In this document: in pieces, positions 630-9,553 of the stretch
Position numbering within the stretch: position 1 is the first letter of the stretch
Layout: the number at the start of each line of letters is the position of its first letter
NCBI RefSeq assembly: GCF_008868125.1
Contig: NZ_WAAQ01000001.1
Coordinates: 496,001 to 560,000 of the forward strand
From: Microbacterium maritypicum
GTDB taxonomy: Bacteria > Actinomycetota > Actinomycetes > Actinomycetales > Microbacteriaceae
Direction: 5' to 3'
Length of the DNA: 64,000 nt
The notes under the pieces: model-generated
Database searches by the model: none
What the model saw: only the letters and a program-made list of their open reading frames with translations
What the model was told of the DNA's origin: nothing
Made by a program: the position numbers and the translations under genes

Positions 630-3600
630 ATGCGTGCGAACACACGTCTGTCCATCCGTCGTGCCGTCGCGGGGGCCACATCAGCACTGCTGCTGGCAGC
701 AGGCCTCACCATCGTGACCGATGCGATCGCACCGACACCGGCCTCGGCCGCGCAGGACCCAACGAGCTGTCAGGGAACGGTGGCGCTGGTCAACGGCGGT
801 TTCGAGGCGCCGGTGCTCCCGAACGCCTCGGTGTCGCTGACGTCGGCCCCACTGGTTCCCGGGTGGTCGACCACCGACAGCCTGAACCAGATCGAGCTCT
901 GGAGCAGCGGTTTCAACGGCGTCACCGCGGCCGCGGGTCGGCAGTTCGCCGAGCTCAACGCCAACTCTCCGAGCAGGCTCTTCCAGGATGTCGCGACGAC
1001 CCCGGGGCAGACGCTCTCCTGGTCGCTGAAGCACCGAGGCCGCAGCGGCACCGATGTGATGCGCGTCGTGATCGGGTCGCCCACCGGCACTCTCGTGCAG
1101 AACGGCCCCAACCTCTCCGACGGGAGCACGGCCTGGGGCTCCCACACCGGCACCTACACCGTTCCCGCAGGGCAGACGGTGACGCGCTTCGGCTTCCAGG
1201 CGGTCAGCTCGGCGGGGGGCGTCGCCTCCGTCGGCAACTTCCTCGACGACATCACCTTCGGAACCGGGCCGTGCCTGATCACGACCAAGTCGGTGACCAA
1301 CCTCACGCGCGGGGGCACCACCGCCGAAGTGGGAGACACGCTGCGTTACACGGTCACGACGAACAACGGCGGCGGAAACCCGGCCCTGCAGTCGGTGTCG
1401 TCCGACGTGCTCGCCTCCGGGATCGACTTCGTGCCCGGCTCCCTCAAGATCATCAGCGGCGCGGGCACGGGCTCGCTCACCGATGCCACGGGCGACGACC
1501 GGGGCTCGTACACCTCGGGCAACCGCACGGTGCAGGTGCGTCTCGGCACCGGCGGCACCGCCACCGCCGGTGGATCCATCGGCGTGGGCGCGAGCACCAG
1601 CTACACCTTCGACGCCAAGGTCAACCTCTCGGCTGCGGCGAGCACCATCGTCAACGAGGCGCGGGTCGCCTTCCGCGACGACGTCGTGGGCCAGGACCGC
1701 ACCTCTGTCAGCCCGGAGACCCAGACGCCCGTGGGCGCGGCGGCGGATCTCGCCATCACCAAGTCGCTCGACACCGATCCGCTCGTCGCCGGACAGCCGG
1801 TCACGTTCTCGATCGGTGTGACGAACAACGGTCCGCAGACGGCGACCGGGGTGACCGTGACGGACCCGATCCCCTCCGGTGTCACGAGCGTCTCCGCCAC
1901 CTCTCCCGGCGCGACCTGCACGGTCGCGGCGACGGTCAGCTGCGCCGTCCCCGACATGGCCGTCGGGCAGAGCGTGCAGATCCAGGTGACGGGCACGCTC
2001 TCGCCGTCGAGCGATCCCGGAGCCTCGCTGTCGAACACGGCCACCGTCTCCGGCACCCGCACCGACCCGAACCTCGGCAACAACACCGCGAGCGTCATCG
2101 GCACGCTGACGACGGCGACCGACGTGTCGATCATCAAGGCGTTCTCCCCGTCGGACCCGGTTGCCGGCCAGAACGTGACCTACACCCTGTCCGTGTCCAA
2201 CGCCGGGCCGTCCGAGGCGCGCAACGTCGTGATCTCCGACCCGCTCGACCCCGAGTCGACCTTCATCAGCGCCACTCCCGAACAGGGAGCGTGCACGGTG
2301 GACGCCTCGGTCGTCACGTGCCAGATCGGAACGCTCGCGCCGGGTGCGACGGCCGTCGAGACCGTGGTGGTGGTGCAGGTCGCCTCCGGTGCCACAGCCG
2401 TCCTCCAGAACACGGCGACGGTGACGACGAGCACGACCGACACGAACCCCGCGAACAACGTGTCGTCGACCAGCTTCGAGCCCGACATCATCGCGGACAT
2501 GTCCGTCGTCAAGACGGCCTCCGCGGCGCAGGTCTCGGCGGGCGATGCGATCGACTTCACCCTCGCGGTGCGCAACCTCGGTTCCTCGGACGCCGTCAAC
2601 GTCGTGCTCGCCGACACCATGCCGGACGGCTTCTCCGTGACCGGAGTGGATGCTCCTCCCGGCGCGACGTGCACGTCCACCGCGAGCTCGATCACGTGCA
2701 ACTGGGCCTCGTTCCTCGTCGGAGGGCCGTCGAACGTCGTCGTGCACGCCGTCGTCGCCGCGGACGCCCCCATCGGCACCGTGACGAACACCGCGGCGGT
2801 CGCAGCCCCCGCCGACGACCGGGACACCACGAACAACGCCAGCTCCGTCGACGTCGAGGTCGTCCAGAGCGCCGACCTGAGCATCGTCAAGACGGCTCCG
2901 GCGACCGGCGAGCCCGGCAGCGCCTTCACCTACACGCTCACGGTCGCGAACGGCGGTCCATCCGTCGCCCGTGGCGCCTCGCTCACCGATACGCTGCCCG
3001 CCGGTTTCCTGGATGCCACCGTCAACGGCTCCGGGTGCTCGATCGTCGGCGGAACCGTCGGGTGCGAACTCGGCGACATCGCCCCTGGTGGGTCGGTGGT
3101 CGTCCAGGTCACCGGCACCTGGAGCACGACGGCCACCGGGATCGTCTCGAACACGGCGACGACCACATCGGCGACGCCCGACCCGAACACCGGCGACAAC
3201 ACCTCGACCGTCGACGTCACGCTCGCGCCGAACACCGATGTGCGCGTCGTCAAGACGACCTCGACCCCGTCCGTCCCGCTCGGCGGAACGGCCACGTTCG
3301 ATGTGACCGTGACCAACGAGGGCCCGTCTGCCGCCTCCGGCGTCGTGCTGAACGAGCTCATGCCCGCGGGCTTCATGCTCACCGGGGCCACGCCGTCGGT
3401 CGGCGCCTGGTCGATGGAGGATGCGCGCTGGACGGTGGGGACGCTGCTTCCCGGAGAGTCGGCGTCGATCACCGTGACCGCGACCGTCCACGTGGAGGGG
3501 CAGCTGGTCAATACGGCCGTCGCGTCCTCGCAGACGCCGGATCCCGACACGTCGAACAACACCGGCACGGCGACCGTGACCGTCACGCCGTCCGCCGACC

Positions 3601-6170
3601 TCGCGATCGTGAAGACGATCTCGGCGAACCCTGCTCCGCTCAACGGCGCCGTGACCTACACGATCGTCGTGACCAACAACGGACCGAGCGTCGCCTCCGC
3701 CGTCACGGTCGCCGACGCGCTCCCCGCCGGGTTGCTGAACCCGTCGACCGCCACCTCCGGATGCACCGTCACGGGATCGCAGCTCGAGTGCACGCGGCCG
3801 ACGCTCGCCGTCGATGCCACCTTCACGGTGACCGTGACCGGCACGGTCGACCCGTCGACCTCGGGCACGACGCTGTCGAACACCGCGACGGTCACCTCGA
3901 GCACGCCCGATCCCGACCCGAGCGACAACACCTCGACCGTGACCGTCCCCGTCTCCGGTGCGCCGCAGGTCGAGCTCGTGAAGAGCGCGGGCATCCCGAC
4001 CGACACCAACGGGGATGCGCGCATCGGTGCCGGCGACACGGTCGCCTACACCTTCACGATCCGCAACACCGGTGATGTCACGCTCACCAGTGCGGCCATC
4101 ACCGATCCGCTCCTCGGCGGCGCTGTGGCCTGCGCGGCGTTCTCCGCTCCGCTGCTGCCCGGCGGCTCGGTCACGTGTGCGCCGGTGTCGTACACGCTCA
4201 CACAGGCGGACGCGGATGCCGGAACGGTGCGCAACACCGCGTCGGTGACCGCGCAGTCCGCCCAGGGGCCCGCGACCGACGATGCCGAGGCGAATGTCAC
4301 CATCGCGGCGACCAACAGCATCAGCCTCGCCAAGGTCCCCTCGACCGTGGTCGACGTGGACGGCGACACGGCCGTCGGCGCGGGTGACACCGTGGACTAC
4401 ACGTTCACCGTGACGAACAACGGAACCACGACGTTGCGCGATGCCGCGATCACCGACGCGATGCTCGGCGGAACCGTCACGTGCCCCGAGCTGAGCGCAG
4501 TCGCACTCGCACCGGGGCAGTCGGTGTCGTGCACGCCGATCACCTACACGCTCACCCAGGAGGACGTCGACGGCGGCCTGGTGCACAACGAGGCCTCCGT
4601 CACCGCGAACGCCCCGATCGGCACGGTGACCGACACCGCGCAGGCCGACGTCGACATCACCGGCACGGCCACGATCGAGCTGCTCAAGAACGTCGGGCGC
4701 TTGCTCGACGTCAACGGCGACGGCTTCATCGGCGCGGGTGACACCGTCGATTACACCTTCTCGGTGCGCAACCGCGGCACCACGACCCTCAGCGATGTGG
4801 TGATCTCGGACCCGTTGCTGGGCGCCGGCACACTGTGCACGATCGGTACCCTCGCCGTGGGCGCAGCGGCCGACTGCGGTCCGCTCACGTACACGCTGAC
4901 GCAGGCCGACGTGGAGGCCGAGATCGTGCGCAACACGGCGACGACGACGGGGACGAGCCCGCTCGGACCGGTCGCCGATGACGCCTCGGCGGATGTCGTG
5001 ATCACGGGCACGAGCGCCATCGAGCTCACCAAGACGGCCGGAGCGATCGTGCTCGGAGCGGACGGCAGGGCGGGCGCCGGAGACACGGTCGGCTACACGT
5101 TCAGGATCCGCAACGCGGGCACCACGGTGCTCCGTGACATCGTGCTCGACGATGCGCTCCTCGGCGGTGCGGTCGACTGCGCCGCGCTCGACGGCCTCGC
5201 GTTGAACCCGGGCGACGAGGTCACCTGCGGACCGGTCGACTACACGCTCATGCAGCAGAACGTCGACGACGGGACCGTGCACAACGTGGCCACCGTGGAG
5301 GGGCAGTCGCGCAACGGCAGTGCCGATGACGAGGATGAGGTCGACGTGCGCGTCGCCGGCACCGACGACATCTCCCTGCTGAAGTCTGCCGCTGCCGTGG
5401 TCGACGCCAACGGCAACGGACGCACGGATGCCGGTGACACGATCGCCTACACGTTCACCGTGACGAACGCGGGAACCACGACCCTCACGGGCATCGCCGT
5501 CAGCGACCCGCGTCTCGCCGGGGTCATCACCTGCGATGCGACCGAGATCGCCCCGGGGGAATCGACCGTCTGCTCGGCAGGATCGCCCGCGGTGCTCACG
5601 CAGGCGGAGATCGATGCCGGGGAGATCGAGAACACGGCGACGGCGACGGGCACCGGCACCTCGGAGATCCCGCCGGTGGCCACCGACACCGTGGTGACGC
5701 CGCTCGTGGCGCAGCCGGCCATCGCCCTGACCAAGACCGGCGGCGACTACGTCGACGTCGATCGCAACGGGAAGATGAACGCCGGGGACACGATCGCGTT
5801 CCGGTTCTCCGTGACCAACACGGGAGCGGTGACCCTGACCGACGTGAAGATCGACGATCCGAAGCTGGGCGGCGCCCTCGATTGCGTGATCCCGGATCTC
5901 GCGCCCGGTGCGACCGCGAACTGCGGCCCGGTCACCTACCGCCTCACCACGGCCGACGTCGCGGCGAGCACGGTCGTGAACGTCGCCACAGCGAGCGCGA
6001 CCGGCGGGGCGGTGACGGTCACTGCAGCCGCGACCGCCATGGTCGACCTGAACGGGCTGGCGGCCACGGGTGGCGTGATCACCGGGATCGGGTGGGCGCT
6101 CGCACTGCTGGCGGTCGGAGCCCTGGTGCTGCTGATCGCCCGTGTGCGTCGTCGCGAGATCGAGGTCTGA
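630..6170 (+). CDS. Large repeat-built surface protein (DUF11 and DUF7507-type repeats, LAxTG-like C-terminus)
   Basis: 1846 residues. An export signal (basic start, hydrophobic core, likely cut after ASA near residue 40) leads into a region of about 180 residues resembling a jelly-roll or lectin-like domain (NGGFEAP, GWSTTDSLNQIELW). About thirteen Ig-like repeats follow. One divergent and six DUF11-type repeats start near residues 220, 371, 496, 622, 747, 868 and 988 (pattern ADLAIVKT...VTNNGPS). Six DUF7507-type repeats start near 1111, 1228, 1346, 1461, 1578 and 1696 (YTFTVTN.GTTTL...DPLLGG). The C-terminus carries LAATGG near 1809, a hydrophobic helix and a basic RVRRREIEV tail, as expected for sorting by a class E sortase. 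The start is preceded by GGGGAGAAG. A short hairpin (584-589 with 601-606) lies in the leader. An adhesive or wall-spacing role is inferred. Confidence 0.88.
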   Translation: MRANTRLSIRRAVAGATSALLLAAGLTIVTDAIAPTPASAAQDPTSCQGTVALVNGGFEAPVLPNASVSLTSAPLVPGWSTTDSLNQIELWSSGFNGVTAAAGRQFAELNANSPSRLFQDVATTPGQTLSWSLKHRGRSGTDVMRVVIGSPTGTLVQNGPNLSDGSTAWGSHTGTYTVPAGQTVTRFGFQAVSSAGGVASVGNFLDDITFGTGPCLITTKSVTNLTRGGTTAEVGDTLRYTVTTNNGGGNPALQSVSSDVLASGIDFVPGSLKIISGAGTGSLTDATGDDRGSYTSGNRTVQVRLGTGGTATAGGSIGVGASTSYTFDAKVNLSAAASTIVNEARVAFRDDVVGQDRTSVSPETQTPVGAAADLAITKSLDTDPLVAGQPVTFSIGVTNNGPQTATGVTVTDPIPSGVTSVSATSPGATCTVAATVSCAVPDMAVGQSVQIQVTGTLSPSSDPGASLSNTATVSGTRTDPNLGNNTASVIGTLTTATDVSIIKAFSPSDPVAGQNVTYTLSVSNAGPSEARNVVISDPLDPESTFISATPEQGACTVDASVVTCQIGTLAPGATAVETVVVVQVASGATAVLQNTATVTTSTTDTNPANNVSSTSFEPDIIADMSVVKTASAAQVSAGDAIDFTLAVRNLGSSDAVNVVLADTMPDGFSVTGVDAPPGATCTSTASSITCNWASFLVGGPSNVVVHAVVAADAPIGTVTNTAAVAAPADDRDTTNNASSVDVEVVQSADLSIVKTAPATGEPGSAFTYTLTVANGGPSVARGASLTDTLPAGFLDATVNGSGCSIVGGTVGCELGDIAPGGSVVVQVTGTWSTTATGIVSNTATTTSATPDPNTGDNTSTVDVTLAPNTDVRVVKTTSTPSVPLGGTATFDVTVTNEGPSAASGVVLNELMPAGFMLTGATPSVGAWSMEDARWTVGTLLPGESASITVTATVHVEGQLVNTAVASSQTPDPDTSNNTGTATVTVTPSADLAIVKTISANPAPLNGAVTYTIVVTNNGPSVASAVTVADALPAGLLNPSTATSGCTVTGSQLECTRPTLAVDATFTVTVTGTVDPSTSGTTLSNTATVTSSTPDPDPSDNTSTVTVPVSGAPQVELVKSAGIPTDTNGDARIGAGDTVAYTFTIRNTGDVTLTSAAITDPLLGGAVACAAFSAPLLPGGSVTCAPVSYTLTQADADAGTVRNTASVTAQSAQGPATDDAEANVTIAATNSISLAKVPSTVVDVDGDTAVGAGDTVDYTFTVTNNGTTTLRDAAITDAMLGGTVTCPELSAVALAPGQSVSCTPITYTLTQEDVDGGLVHNEASVTANAPIGTVTDTAQADVDITGTATIELLKNVGRLLDVNGDGFIGAGDTVDYTFSVRNRGTTTLSDVVISDPLLGAGTLCTIGTLAVGAAADCGPLTYTLTQADVEAEIVRNTATTTGTSPLGPVADDASADVVITGTSAIELTKTAGAIVLGADGRAGAGDTVGYTFRIRNAGTTVLRDIVLDDALLGGAVDCAALDGLALNPGDEVTCGPVDYTLMQQNVDDGTVHNVATVEGQSRNGSADDEDEVDVRVAGTDDISLLKSAAAVVDANGNGRTDAGDTIAYTFTVTNAGTTTLTGIAVSDPRLAGVITCDATEIAPGESTVCSAGSPAVLTQAEIDAGEIENTATATGTGTSEIPPVATDTVVTPLVAQPAIALTKTGGDYVDVDRNGKMNAGDTIAFRFSVTNTGAVTLTDVKIDDPKLGGALDCVIPDLAPGATANCGPVTYRLTTADVAASTVVNVATASATGGAVTVTAAATAMVDLNGLAATGGVITGIGWALALLAVGALVLLIARVRRREIEV

Positions 6171-7272: not shown

Positions 7273-7929
7273 TCAGCGGAAGCTGACGAGACCGGCGTGC
7301 GCGGCGGTCACGAGGATCTGCACGCGGTCGCGCAGGTGCCACTTGGACATCATGCGTCCGAGGTGGGCTTTCACCGTGCCCTCGGAGACGATGAGCGCCT
7401 TGGCGATCTCGGCGTTCGACATGCCCTGTGCCAGGCAGTGCAGCACCTCGACCTCGCGCTCGGTGAGCGGCTCGAGTGCGGCGGCATCCGCCGCCACGGG
7501 GGTCGAGTCGCGCACGTGCTTGATGAGCATCGAGGCGATGCGAGGGGAGAGCGAGCTGGCACCGCTGTGTACCTCGCGGACGCCGGTGACGATGTCGTCG
7601 GCGCTGGAGTCCTTGAGCAGGTAGCCGGAGGCGCCGGCGCTCAGCATCGGAAGCACCGTGTCGCTGCCATCGAGCGTCGTGACGGCGAGCACACGAACGT
7701 GAGGCCAGCGTTCGGCGATCACACCGGTGGCTTCGATGCCGTCCATCTCGGGCATCTGCACGTCCATCATCACCACGTCGGGCTGCTCGCGTTCGACGGT
7801 GGCGATCGCCTCCACGCCGTCTTCCGCCTGTGCGACCACAGTGATCTCCGGGTCGCGCGACACGAAGTGCGACAACGCCGAACGGACCAGTGGATCATCG
7901 TCGACGATCACGACACGGATTTCCTGCAT
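7273..7929 (-). CDS. NarL/FixJ-type response regulator
   Basis: 218 residues. An N-terminal receiver domain (about 4-120) has the acidic pocket D10-D12 and phospho-acceptor D56 in MMDVQMPEMDG. A linker and a C-terminal LuxR-type helix-turn-helix follow (about 152-210, LTEREVEVLHCLAQGMSNAEIA...EGTVKAHL). It binds DNA when phosphorylated, usually by a HisKA_3 kinase. The probable partner is the kinase at 8157, which is transcribed away from it. The 227-base gap between the two genes also carries the small ORF at 8080. A 10-bp palindrome TTTGGCCAAA (7977-7986), 47 bases upstream of its ATG, is a possible binding site. No ligand or target is known from sequence. Confidence 0.93.
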   Translation of the reverse strand: MQEIRVVIVDDDPLVRSALSHFVSRDPEITVVAQAEDGVEAIATVEREQPDVVMMDVQMPEMDGIEATGVIAERWPHVRVLAVTTLDGSDTVLPMLSAGASGYLLKDSSADDIVTGVREVHSGASSLSPRIASMLIKHVRDSTPVAADAAALEPLTEREVEVLHCLAQGMSNAEIAKALIVSEGTVKAHLGRMMSKWHLRDRVQILVTAAHAGLVSFR

Positions 7930-7976
7930 AGGGGGAAGCCTAACGGCGAGAGCGCCCGGACGACGTCATGTAGACC

Positions 7977-7986
7977 TTTGGCCAAA
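7977..7986. promoter_or_regulatory. Palindrome TTTGGCCAAA in the divergent promoter region
   Basis: A perfect 10-bp palindrome lies in a locally AT-richer stretch between the divergent regulator (start 7929) and the small ORF (start 8080). NarL-family regulators usually bind short inverted repeats. A role as operator is suggested only by its position. Confidence 0.3.
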
Positions 7987-8079
7987 AACCTCTGGACGTG
8001 AGACAGATGTGCGCCACGCAGATCGCCGAGAAGATGAATACAGACATCGACAAACGACTACATAATGGAGGTGAATGTA

Positions 8080-8127
8080 ATGACTTTCTGGCAGCAGGTT
8101 GGCAAGTTCTTCGGTCTTCACCGCTAG
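8080..8127 (+). CDS. Small ORF encoding a 15-residue amphipathic peptide upstream of the kinase
   Basis: ATG at 8080 to TAG at 8125-8127 encodes MTFWQQVGKFFGLHR. A near-perfect ribosome binding site, GGAGGTG (8067-8073), sits at ideal spacing. An in-frame ATG at 8065 would add five residues but overlaps that site, so 8080 is the better start. The peptide has aromatic and aliphatic residues (F3, W4, V7, F10, F11, L13) spaced to form one hydrophobic helix face, with K9, H14 and R15 giving positive charge and no export signal. It lies 29 bases before the histidine kinase and probably shares its transcript. It could be a signal for the kinase, a leader peptide coupling translation, or a membrane-active microprotein. 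No homologue is recognised; translation is inferred from the strong site alone. Confidence 0.6.
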   Translation: MTFWQQVGKFFGLHR

Positions 8128-8156
8128 AGTACCTGGCGAAAAGGAGATAGTGAACC

Positions 8157-9299
8157 ATGGCCTTCGACCAATCCACTCGAGGATCGGCGGATACGCTCCG
8201 CTTGACCCGCGGTGAGAAGCTCAGCGCGATCGAGCGCATCGTCGTCTTGGTCATCGTCACAATCACCGTCGCCACGGACCTCATAGGCTTCTTCACCACA
8301 CCGGGTGTCAACCCGGTCGCACTGTTGGTGAGCGTTGCATCCACTGCAGCGTTCGTCCTCTACCTCTGGAAGCCGCTCATCGCGACATGTGCCCTCGGGG
8401 TCGTGTTCGCATCGTCTTTCCTCACCGGATCAGAGCTCCAGGTCCTGACAGCCGCCGCAGTCGCGGCCGGCTTCGTCATGAGACTGGGGTGGACATCGCT
8501 GATCCTCTCTTACACCGGCGTTTTCCTGGTCGCGGCGGCCATCGTGGCCAACGGCGACGCCGATTCCGGCGTCAACGTCGCGCTGTATCTCATCTTCGCC
8601 ACCGTGGCAGGAGCCGTCGGGTTCGCCCTTCGGCTCGCCTTCGCCCGGGGGAGTCGTCTCGAGCGCGAGCTCGAGGAGAGAGCCGAGCAGGAACGTCAGG
8701 CCGTACTCGCCGAGCGGCGATGGATCGCCGGTGAGCTGCACGACAGCATCGCGCACCACCTCACGGTGGTGGCGCTGCACGTGCAGATGCTCGAAGACCC
8801 CGAGACCAGCAACGACTCGCAAGAAGCGATCCGCGTCGCCGCGCGCAAGGCGATGACAGATCTCCGCTTCGTGATCGAACTCGCGGACGACGGTCCGCAG
8901 TCCTCCAGTGTGCAGACCGGCGACCTCGCGGCAGCGATCGACGAGGCGCAGGGCGAGTTCGAATCGGCCGGTCACTCCGTGGCCCGCGAGGGAGACCCTC
9001 GCGACGAGCGCATCCCGCGTGCGGTCGAGATCGTCCTCGCGCGCATCGTGCGCGAGTCGGCCACCAACATCCTGAAATACGCAGGCCCCGGCGAGGTGCA
9101 GATCGACCTCGCCGTGGACGACGAGGTCGCGCACCTCACGCTGCGCAGCCCCCTCCCGACGACCCCACGCCGCGAGCTCTCCTCCAGTCGCACCGGCCTC
9201 GGCCGGATGGCGGAGCGGGTGATGGGAGCGAGCGGCGAGTTCAGCGCCGGCGAAGTCGACGGATTCTGGGTCGTGTCGGCCCGACTTCCCGTCGTCTGA
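8157..9299 (+). CDS. Membrane sensor histidine kinase (HisKA_3 type)
   Basis: 380 residues. The N-terminal 165 residues hold about five or six hydrophobic segments with hardly any extracytoplasmic loop, so the sensor looks buried in the membrane. A coiled-coil-like linker follows (ERELEERAEQERQAVLAERR), then the dimerisation and phosphotransfer motif GELHDSIAHHL with phospho-acceptor H195, and a HATPase region with the N-box ESATNILKYAG near 300 and a G-box near 345. The ATG at 8157 follows AAAAGGAGATAG. The cognate regulator is probably the divergent gene at 7273-7929. A 15-codon ORF precedes it by 29 bases. An intramembrane sensor plus a short amphipathic peptide recalls peptide- or envelope-sensing kinases, but the signal is unknown. 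Confidence 0.9.
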   Translation: MAFDQSTRGSADTLRLTRGEKLSAIERIVVLVIVTITVATDLIGFFTTPGVNPVALLVSVASTAAFVLYLWKPLIATCALGVVFASSFLTGSELQVLTAAAVAAGFVMRLGWTSLILSYTGVFLVAAAIVANGDADSGVNVALYLIFATVAGAVGFALRLAFARGSRLERELEERAEQERQAVLAERRWIAGELHDSIAHHLTVVALHVQMLEDPETSNDSQEAIRVAARKAMTDLRFVIELADDGPQSSSVQTGDLAAAIDEAQGEFESAGHSVAREGDPRDERIPRAVEIVLARIVRESATNILKYAGPGEVQIDLAVDDEVAHLTLRSPLPTTPRRELSSSRTGLGRMAERVMGASGEFSAGEVDGFWVVSARLPVV

Positions 9300-9342: not shown

Positions 9343-9358
9343 CTAGACGAAAGTCTAG
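9343..9358. repeat. Small inverted repeat CTAGAC-GAAA-GTCTAG
   Basis: A six-base perfect stem (9343-9348 with 9353-9358) is closed by a GAAA tetraloop, 44 bases after the kinase stop. No T-run follows, so it is at best a weak terminator. TCTAGA or CTCTAGAG variants recur nearby (9302-9309, 9354-9360). The rest of 9300-9553 shows no supported gene. Confidence 0.45.
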
Positions 9359-9553
9359 AGAAGTCTCGACGTTCGACCCTGTGGAACGCGTTGCGATCAG
9401 CCGTAATCTGAAAGCTCCCCAGATAAAGCGTCCCCAGCGCTGCGATCGCGGGCGCGGTCTTTCTGGCTTCTGAAACACTTTGCGCGCTCGCGATCGCCTT
9501 CTGCGTTAAGGGCCGATTCTCCGGCCTCCCGCCACGGGGTTCCGCATGCCCGG

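What the first reader, a model, noticed from the sequence alone, without database searches (positions are those of the whole stretch)
8080..8127. A 15-residue amphipathic peptide ORF ahead of a histidine kinase, in a divergent two-component locus
MTFWQQVGKFFGLHR is preceded by GGAGGTG at perfect spacing, closer to consensus than most genes in the window, and ends 29 bases before an intramembrane-sensing kinase. The cognate regulator is transcribed the other way. Leaderless amphipathic micropeptides can act as cell-cell signals, kinase cofactors or membrane-active agents. Seen: the ORF, ribosome site and context. Inferred: translation and any signalling role.
Basis: partly seen in the sequence, partly recalled or inferred. 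Interest (0 to 1): 0.82.

Follow-up and report, generated by a model that had tools for sequence, protein, structure and literature searches.

The report
Tiny peptide gene paired with kinase
A 15-amino-acid peptide gene is conserved beside a membrane sensor kinase in Microbacterium, changes in step with that sensor, and sits in a compact unit that also holds a conserved structured RNA, so it looks like a bacterial signalling circuit that I found no report of.

Summary
The ORF is real and under selection for its amino acids. Of 46 distinct Microbacterium loci with a close kinase orthologue, 44 keep an intact 15-codon ORF; pN/pS is 0.47 against 0.94 in shuffles (0/300). Its amphipathicity is not beyond chance. 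It is one form of a wider family: 24 of 28 diverged Microbacterium kinases (about 30-43% identity) and 7 of 7 further strong kinase hits, six of them in four other Microbacteriaceae genera, have a tiny ORF there with a shared C-terminal pattern, often C-x5-C. 47 generic kinase loci have none. Peptide divergence follows the kinase's membrane part, not its catalytic part. Conserved boxes precede the peptide (46/46) and follow the kinase (39/42). After the second lies an RNA-like segment without Rfam match (9411-9507), strongly found in exactly the 21 of 99 genomes with the close kinase; 12 of the 21 were in its model. Nine diverged loci have a different C-rich-loop RNA there; 21 others show none. 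Best reading: peptide ligand, DesK-type kinase, regulator, regulatory RNA. Signalling, export and expression are inferred.

The parts
7273..7929 (-). response regulator, REC + LuxR/GerE HTH, divergent
   Evidence: Pfam; divergent beside the kinase in 54 of 54 close loci, duplicates included, and 24 of 28 diverged ones
7971..7984 (.). palindromic box TAGACCTTTGGCCA, putative regulator binding site between regulator and peptide
   Evidence: degenerate consensus, drawn from the same data, found without mismatch in 46 of 46 distinct close loci; 2.2 expected with up to 1 mismatch from base shuffles; binding not tested
8067..8073 (+). ribosome binding site GGAGGTG of the peptide ORF
   Evidence: sequence; GGTGA-type sites in most orthologues (listing)
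8080..8127 (+). 15-codon peptide ORF MTFWQQVGKFFGLHR
   Evidence: intact in 44 of 46 distinct loci; pN/pS 0.47 against null 0.94
8114..8148 (+). possible hairpin over the peptide stop codon and kinase ribosome site (outer stem 8114-8119/8143-8148, inner stem 8122-8127/8133-8138)
   Evidence: 83.5% of cells pair in the 39 of 46 loci without indels, at most 50.2% when slid, but only 4 cells with a change on both sides: weak
8143..8148 (+). GGAGAT: ribosome site of the kinase; overlaps a -10-like GATAGT
   Evidence: conserved in most close loci (listing); read by eye
8157..9299 (+). DesK-type sensor histidine kinase, six hydrophobic N-terminal helices, no outer domain in the model
   Evidence: HisKA_3; AF2 model, hydropathy; DesK best PDB match of the catalytic part by sequence and fold
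9343..9358 (.). palindrome CTAGACGAAAGTCTAG, putative regulator box
   Evidence: box without mismatch in 39 of 42 testable close loci; 1.95 expected with up to 1 mismatch
9366..9379 (.). second box-like sequence TCGACGTTCGACCC, 22 bases on, centre to centre
   Evidence: located; seen by eye in relatives; not tested
9404..9409 (+). TAATCT, -10-like element before the RNA
   Evidence: TANNNT-like at this place in many relatives, by eye; the sigma-70 scan found nothing
9411..9507 (+). conserved structured RNA with TCCCCAG loop and a 14-bp helix
   Evidence: R1 places it here (this sequence is in the model); 96.9% of cells paired, 5 pairs with changes on both sides; no Rfam match at E<=1; transcription not shown

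Best explanation
The locus is a compact signalling unit. The 15-residue peptide is made as such, without signal sequence or visible maturation gene, and acts at the membrane as the cognate ligand of the DesK-type kinase encoded after it, probably on neighbouring and own cells alike. The kinase passes the signal to the divergent LuxR-type regulator, which binds palindromic boxes before the peptide gene (feedback) and after the kinase, and there drives a small structured RNA with C-rich loops that would pair with ribosome sites of target mRNAs. Shown by computation: the ORF is under selection as protein, it belongs to a family tied to this kinase branch, it co-diverges with the kinase membrane part, the boxes and the RNA segment are conserved. 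Inferred: translation level, export, ligand binding, regulator binding, RNA expression and targets.
For: Intact ORF in 44 of 46 loci and pN/pS 0.47. 24 of 28 diverged Microbacterium kinases (20 distinct peptide sequences) and 7 of 7 other intact kinases with E<=2e-65, own locus aside, carry a tiny ORF with the same C-terminal pattern; for the 22 found automatically among the 28, shuffles expect 0.05; 0 hits in 376,508 nt around 47 generic kinases. In 44 close loci peptide divergence follows the membrane part (partial r 0.70) and not the catalytic part (0.05), while the regulator does the reverse (0.32, 0.71); in 26 diverged loci the same trend is weaker (0.27 against -0.06). No outer domain in the kinase model, so a membrane-borne ligand fits. 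Boxes 46/46 and 39/42. RNA at E<1e-6 in exactly the 21 of 99 genomes with the close kinase; 9 of these 21 were not in the model. A different C-rich-loop RNA at the same place in nine diverged loci, 11 of 41 pairs with compensatory changes. In L202 two lexapeptide-type (LxmA leader) precursors follow the kinase. Two outgroup loci have a small ORF with paired cysteines at or near the end after what reads by eye as a Sec signal.
Against: No expression, peptide or binding data. No dedicated exporter or protease was seen at the window locus; the EamA transporter next door is not constant, and diverged loci were not searched for exporters. One close locus keeps the kinase but has a stop at codon 14 (L078). 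4 of 28 diverged kinases lack a clear peptide: L085 (transposase-like sequence upstream, by eye), L104 (degenerate), L087 and L095 (none). L112 and L113 have no recognisable ribosome site, L116 a GTG start. No C-loop hairpin was found within 400 nt after 21 diverged or other-genus kinases, so the RNA is probably not a constant part. 12 of 21 genomes with the RNA supplied its model. The Mantel-type p values do not fully remove shared ancestry. Box consensus, peptide pattern and the 1e-6 line were chosen after seeing the data.
Confidence: 0.58

Rival explanations
1. The peptide is a private, never released membrane partner of the kinase (accessory subunit or inhibitor), as MgrB is to PhoQ (recalled), not a signal between cells.
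For: Same gene order and co-divergence with the membrane part; no dedicated exporter seen at the locus; the kinase model has no outer domain.
Against: 16 of 24 diverged forms have C-x5-C near the C-terminus, and two outgroup loci have a signal-peptide-like start, which suits exported peptides. None of this excludes the rival.
Confidence: 0.2
2. The ORF is a leader that couples or attenuates translation of the kinase: its last codons and stop lie in a hairpin that covers the kinase ribosome site.
For: Predicted hairpin, mean folding z about -1.6 over 45 loci and 83.5% of cells paired in 39 of 46 loci; in the close loci the 28 bases after the stop are as conserved as the ORF (p-distance 0.10 and 0.12).
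Against: Only 4 compensatory cells. W4 and G12 are invariant in 44 of 44 and replacements are more conservative than in any of 300 shuffles, which coupling does not need. 13 of 28 diverged kinases have ATAAT 4-8 bases before the chosen start codon, as in leaderless transcripts, and L082-L084 have a strong GC hairpin between peptide and kinase (by eye), so the peptide there looks like its own transcript.
Confidence: 0.13
3. The peptide is itself a membrane-active product (modulin- or bacteriocin-like) and the kinase senses its damage or provides immunity.
For: Small, hydrophobic, rich in W and F; one diverged locus sits beside lexapeptide-type precursors.
Against: Helical moment not exceptional; the recurrent pairing and co-divergence with the membrane part fit a ligand better.
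Confidence: 0.09

Closest known systems
agr / RNAIII quorum sensing of staphylococci (recalled)
   Same: Peptide gene, membrane kinase and regulator in one locus, with a regulatory RNA having C-rich loops as likely output.
   Different: No AgrB found in this genome; peptide only 12-36 residues; kinase DesK-type rather than AgrC-type; the RNA lies after the kinase.
DesK-DesR two-component system (PDB 7ssj, 3gie)
   Same: Best sequence and fold match of the kinase catalytic part; membrane helices without outer domain; LuxR-type regulator.
   Different: DesK is known as a membrane-state thermosensor (recalled) without a peptide gene; here a tiny ORF and an RNA flank the kinase and the regulator is divergent.
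SIP-RopB of Streptococcus pyogenes (PMC6565748, abstract and outline seen)
   Same: Secreted leaderless peptide signal.
   Different: The receptor is RopB, not a membrane kinase.
MgrB-PhoQ (recalled) and DbfQ-DbfRS (PMC12714742, seen in the listing)
   Same: Small protein encoded by or near a kinase that it controls.
   Different: Larger proteins, Gram-negative hosts, no regulatory RNA in the unit (recalled).
6C RNA of Actinobacteria (recalled; named in the listings)
   Same: Actinobacterial RNA with C-rich hairpin loops.
   Different: No Rfam match at E<=1; loops mostly TCCCCAG; placed at the two-component locus.

Membership tests
DesK-type HisKA_3 kinase | HisKA_3 phosphoacceptor domain | tested here: met
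   PF07730 E 1.4e-10, 42 bits against cut-off 24
DesK-type HisKA_3 kinase | similarity of the catalytic part to solved DesK | tested here: met
   7ssj E 2.6e-23 by profile; DesK top in Foldseek, over the catalytic part only, TM of the query about 0.3
DesK-type HisKA_3 kinase | membrane helices without outer domain | tested here: met
   six hydrophobic helices with 2-5-residue joints in a predicted model; no experiment
agr / RNAIII | AgrB protease | tested here: not met
   PF04647: 0 matches in the own genome at E<=0.001 (the 14 control genomes gave one match, below cut-off, so the control says little about power)
agr / RNAIII | AgrD-type precursor with charged tail after the signal | tested here: not met
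   the peptide ends within two or three residues of the conserved part
agr / RNAIII | regulator-driven regulatory RNA at the locus | tested here: inconclusive
   conserved boxes and structured segment, no expression data
6C RNA | match to its Rfam covariance model | tested here: not met
   no Rfam family at E<=1; that the model is among the 4227 is recalled
translation-coupling leader peptide | conserved RNA structure with covariation over the downstream ribosome site | tested here: inconclusive
   pairs mostly invariant, 4 compensatory cells
exported peptide pheromone | release from cells and activity on others | not testable with these tools
   needs mass spectrometry and peptide addition

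The most novel reading that the evidence does not exclude
A peptide quorum-sensing family of Microbacteriaceae: unprocessed or barely processed peptides of 12-36 residues, with an exchangeable C-terminal ligand part of about 12 residues (possibly cyclised by C-x5-C in many lineages, linear in the window lineage), act inside the membrane on DesK-type kinases with no outer domain, and in at least two lineages switch on RNAs with C-rich loops, an RNAIII-like output that has arisen in two unrelated sequence forms; in another lineage the same circuit stands before antimicrobial peptide genes.
Probability: 0.4. Interest if true: 0.92.

Novelty: new variant of a known kind. Interest (0 to 1): 0.85.

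Why it matters
A 2016 review states that for Microbacterium there is no evidence of quorum sensing, not even bioinformatic (PMC4748050, passages seen). If the unit works as proposed it would give the genus a peptide signal, would show that a 15-residue primary translation product can serve as a kinase ligand without a dedicated exporter, and would add an actinobacterial counterpart to the agr-RNAIII logic. It is directly testable: one start-codon change, one synthetic peptide and one Northern blot decide most of it.

Tried and rejected
Amphipathic helix as the distinguishing feature: rejected. Hairpin over the stop codon as the reason for conservation: kept only as a rival. Peptide outside the genus by nucleotide motif: one motif hit 1 of 299 family genomes, the window's own; a C-type motif hit 0 of 394 class genomes. 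Both were too tight (they miss known members); the family beyond the genus was found only through the kinase. The class-wide kinase search gave no second group clearly above generic kinases (best outside the genus 6.9e-59), so I do not claim the unit beyond the order. In the order search L148 shows no peptide by eye; L146 was printed from inside its kinase because the contig cuts the locus, so for it I have only the whole-locus pattern scan (none). The same cut spoils the offsets for a few loci; one search scanned whole loci. One search's looser cysteine pattern also hit one generic kinase locus (L139), presumably by chance. EamA and GntR: found in 15 and 19 of 19 named close loci, but in only 1 of the 32 larger loci L189-L220 (L220), three of the other 31 being close loci; so not part of the unit. 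Genome-wide box search: 10 sites with up to 1 mismatch against 19 for the reversed pattern, so it says nothing about a regulon beyond the two sites at the locus. RNA targets were not predicted. Database searches for the two outgroup small proteins found only themselves, in Georgenia faecalis and Devriesea agamarum. In one search the kinase starts of L090, L107 and L110 were approximate positions, not start codons. Literature: nine searches listed no paper on such a unit; the library holds open-licence papers only and no preprints.

The R1 search also gave weak matches (E 1e-6 to 1e-3) in three genomes without the close kinase (G002, G036, G093), at other places in some genomes with it, and on the opposite strand of the same hairpin; I count only E<1e-6. 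R1 was built from 29 of the 44 stretches listed (one of the 44, L030, is unrelated; L058 was out of register; most of the others left out are near-duplicates).

Full report
WHAT IS THERE. Window 8080-8127(+) encodes MTFWQQVGKFFGLHR, with GGAGGTG at 8067-8073 and the kinase start at 8157. The kinase has HisKA_3, the divergent regulator REC and GerE domains. The genome is taken to be a Microbacterium: among the named records the nearest kinase is that of M. maritypicum MF109 (93%). The ribosome site alone is weak evidence: 106 such sites lie near an ATG in the genome, against 17 for the reversed pattern.

IS THE ORF A GENE. I took 54 loci with a close kinase orthologue (58-100% identity; 19 named records, the rest, own genome included, from the 149 genomes and) and reduced them to 46 with distinct DNA. 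44 have an intact 15-codon ORF. W4 and G12 are invariant in all 44. L078 (kinase 65%) has a stop at codon 14. L081 (genome G033) has frameshifts in peptide, kinase and regulator alike, which may be decay or a poor assembly. For the 44 ORFs pN/pS is 0.47; 300 column shuffles gave a mean of 0.94 and a minimum of 0.49; replacements are more conservative than in every shuffle; the other two frames give 0.81 and 1.58, with stops in 31 and 6 sequences. So the product matters. Amphipathicity does not stand out (41% of shuffles reach it). Of the 149 genomes, a pattern for the ORF with up to 3 mismatches hit 15, all of which have the close kinase.

A WIDER PEPTIDE FAMILY. One search also listed 28 kinases at about 30-43% identity in Microbacterium. 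All 28 upstream regions were fetched. 24 have a tiny ORF there: 22 by an automatic pattern with ribosome site within 200 nt (0.05 expected from dinucleotide shuffles) and two by eye (L086, L107). They hold 20 distinct peptides, since some loci are close kin. The ORFs differ in length (12-28 residues with the starts I chose) but share the end: x-x-x-[LIFVW]-[CG]-[RQKE]-x-[LIVF]-[GRQ]-[LIVAFT]-x-x(-x)-stop, with W at the first of these places in 19 of 24; for instance MVMPFGIWDSLCRLLGLCS, MFRILIPAAYADGVWEDICRILQFCS, MLGFILVQVIGTVKLLDPWWCQIIRTCG and MWYWLGQLIGIFK. Of the 24, 16 have C-x5-C and 8 neither cysteine; in the window lineage 41 of 44 have neither and 3 only the first. The four without a clear peptide are L085 (transposase-like sequence upstream), L087, L095 and L104 (degenerate). 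A family-wide profile search (199 genomes) gave a clear gap: besides the window's own locus, seven intact kinases at E<=2e-65 (L112-L118: six from four other genera, including two pairs of close kin, and one Microbacterium), then nothing intact before 2.7e-50. All seven have such an ORF, such as MFSGTKIIAPLQLSFFEWLCQMFGICS and MSPLNPFGIGPLISTMVASNADLGDWLCKMLGICA, though L112 and L113 have no recognisable ribosome site and L116 starts with GTG. 47 generic kinase loci gave 0 pattern hits in 376,508 nt over both strands; in the window itself the pattern gives the ORF and one other, chance-like hit. The pattern was drawn up after seeing the sequences, so these numbers are descriptive. In the order (218 genomes) L142 (Microbacterium) has a form too, L148 none, L146 none by pattern; L147 (Georgenia) and L149 (Devriesea) have a 66- and a 51-residue ORF with a Sec-like start (by eye) and C-x5-C at the end or C-x6-C near it.

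WHAT THE PEPTIDE BELONGS TO. In 44 close loci I compared distance matrices. Peptide amino-acid distance correlates with the kinase membrane part (residues 21-150) after removing the catalytic part (partial r 0.70), and not the other way round (0.05). The regulator shows the opposite (0.32 and 0.71); synonymous sites of the ORF (0.17, 0.18) and the DNA just upstream (0.15, 0.38) show no preference for the membrane part. With catalytic part, regulator and synonymous sites all removed the correlation is 0.67 (permutation p 0.001). In 26 diverged loci it is weaker (0.27). Relatedness is not fully removed by this, but the regulator, on the other side of the peptide, is a fair control. The kinase model has six hydrophobic helices with joints of 2-5 residues and no outer domain; its catalytic part is DesK-like. 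A peptide that sits in the membrane is the ligand one would expect.

THE OTHER PARTS. A palindrome TAGACCTTTGGCCA (7971-7984) lies between regulator and peptide, and CTAGACGAAAGTCTAG (9343-9358) after the kinase. A degenerate consensus covering both is present without mismatch in 46 of 46 upstream and 39 of 42 testable downstream regions (four were cut off; of the three misses L081 is a split kinase); about 2 each would be expected with up to one mismatch. The downstream box is followed by TAATCT and by a conserved segment, 9411-9507. Its alignment (29 of 44 stretches) gives 96.9% of cells paired in a TCCCCAG-loop hairpin and a 14-bp helix, 5 pairs with changes on both sides (3 of 500 shuffles reach this) and slid versions at 13-52%. 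A covariance model from it hit, at E<1e-6, exactly those 21 of 99 Microbacterium genomes that have the close kinase (20 intact, one broken), roughly 80-230 nt after the kinase match each time, and none of the other 78; three of those 78 have a weak hit between 1e-6 and 1e-3. 12 of the 21 had supplied sequences to the model, so their hits are no test; the nine others and the 78 blanks are. There is one match in the window's genome. Nine diverged loci of the lineages without cysteines have, at the same place after a similar box, a different and longer RNA: 41 pairs, 11 with changes on both sides (0 of 500 shuffles; the count of pair types is not exceptional, 121 of 500); its loops are again mostly TCCCCAG and TCCCCCCAG. 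Neither kind matches Rfam at E<=1 (of the second kind three of nine loci were searched). Within 400 nt after 21 other diverged or other-genus kinases a scan for C-loop hairpins found none; it also missed two of three close loci tried, so it is a weak negative. Other ORFs lie there in several; in L202 two match the LxmA leader model above cut-off (26.2 and 26.3 against 25), that is, lexapeptide-type precursors.

HOW IT PROBABLY WORKS. Peptide to membrane kinase to regulator to RNA, with feedback on the peptide promoter. The order of parts resembles agr-RNAIII, but no AgrB was found in the genome and the protein families differ. I put 0.58 on the peptide being the kinase ligand in such a circuit, 0.2 on a private membrane partner, 0.13 on a mere leader, 0.09 on a membrane-active product. 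The leader reading rests on a hairpin over the kinase ribosome site that pairs in 83.5% of cells (39 of 46 loci) but almost without covariation.

WHAT IS KNOWN. A review of 2016 says that no evidence of quorum sensing exists for Microbacterium, not even bioinformatic (PMC4748050; passages). SIP of Streptococcus pyogenes is a secreted leaderless peptide acting on RopB (PMC6565748; abstract and outline). Ribosome profiling in pneumococcus found tiny ORFs next to a quorum-sensing receptor (PMC9426450; abstract and passages). Nine paper searches listed nothing on this unit; the library lacks most subscription papers and all preprints. agr, MgrB and 6C RNA are named from recall.

LIMITS. Everything here is comparative sequence analysis. 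No expression, binding, export or phenotype has been shown. Motif and box consensus come from the data they describe. The structure model is a prediction.

Noticed in passing
L202 (G092), about 140-520 nt after the kinase: Two LxmA-leader (lexapeptide-type, class V lanthipeptide) precursors and a methyltransferase-like ORF (by eye) lie after a kinase of this family, behind a box-like sequence.
   Followed up: partly
L229-L237, downstream of the kinases: A second conserved structured RNA (about 170 nt, C-rich loops), different in sequence from the window's RNA; three loci of this lineage gave no Rfam match.
   Followed up: partly
L147 (Georgenia faecalis) and L149 (Devriesea agamarum): Small proteins with Sec-like starts and paired cysteines at or near the C-terminus beside related kinases; annotated only as hypothetical.
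   Followed up: partly
L095 (G076:C43), upstream of the kinase, opposite strand: An ORF starting MWSFLAKIGGAGVRVV, reminiscent of leaderless bacteriocins (recalled), beside a kinase that lacks the tiny peptide.
   Followed up: no
L081/L220 (G033): Peptide, kinase and regulator all carry frameshifts while the RNA segment still matches its model: decay of the unit or assembly errors.
   Followed up: partly
diverged loci L082-L110, kinase starts: 13 of 28 have ATAAT 4-8 bases before the chosen start codon, as in leaderless transcripts, between peptide and kinase.
   Followed up: partly
L082-L084, just after the peptide stop: A strong GC hairpin separates peptide and kinase and could end the peptide transcript (by eye).
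   Followed up: no
window 630-6170: A 1846-residue surface-protein-like ORF with many repeats (by eye) near the locus.
   Followed up: no
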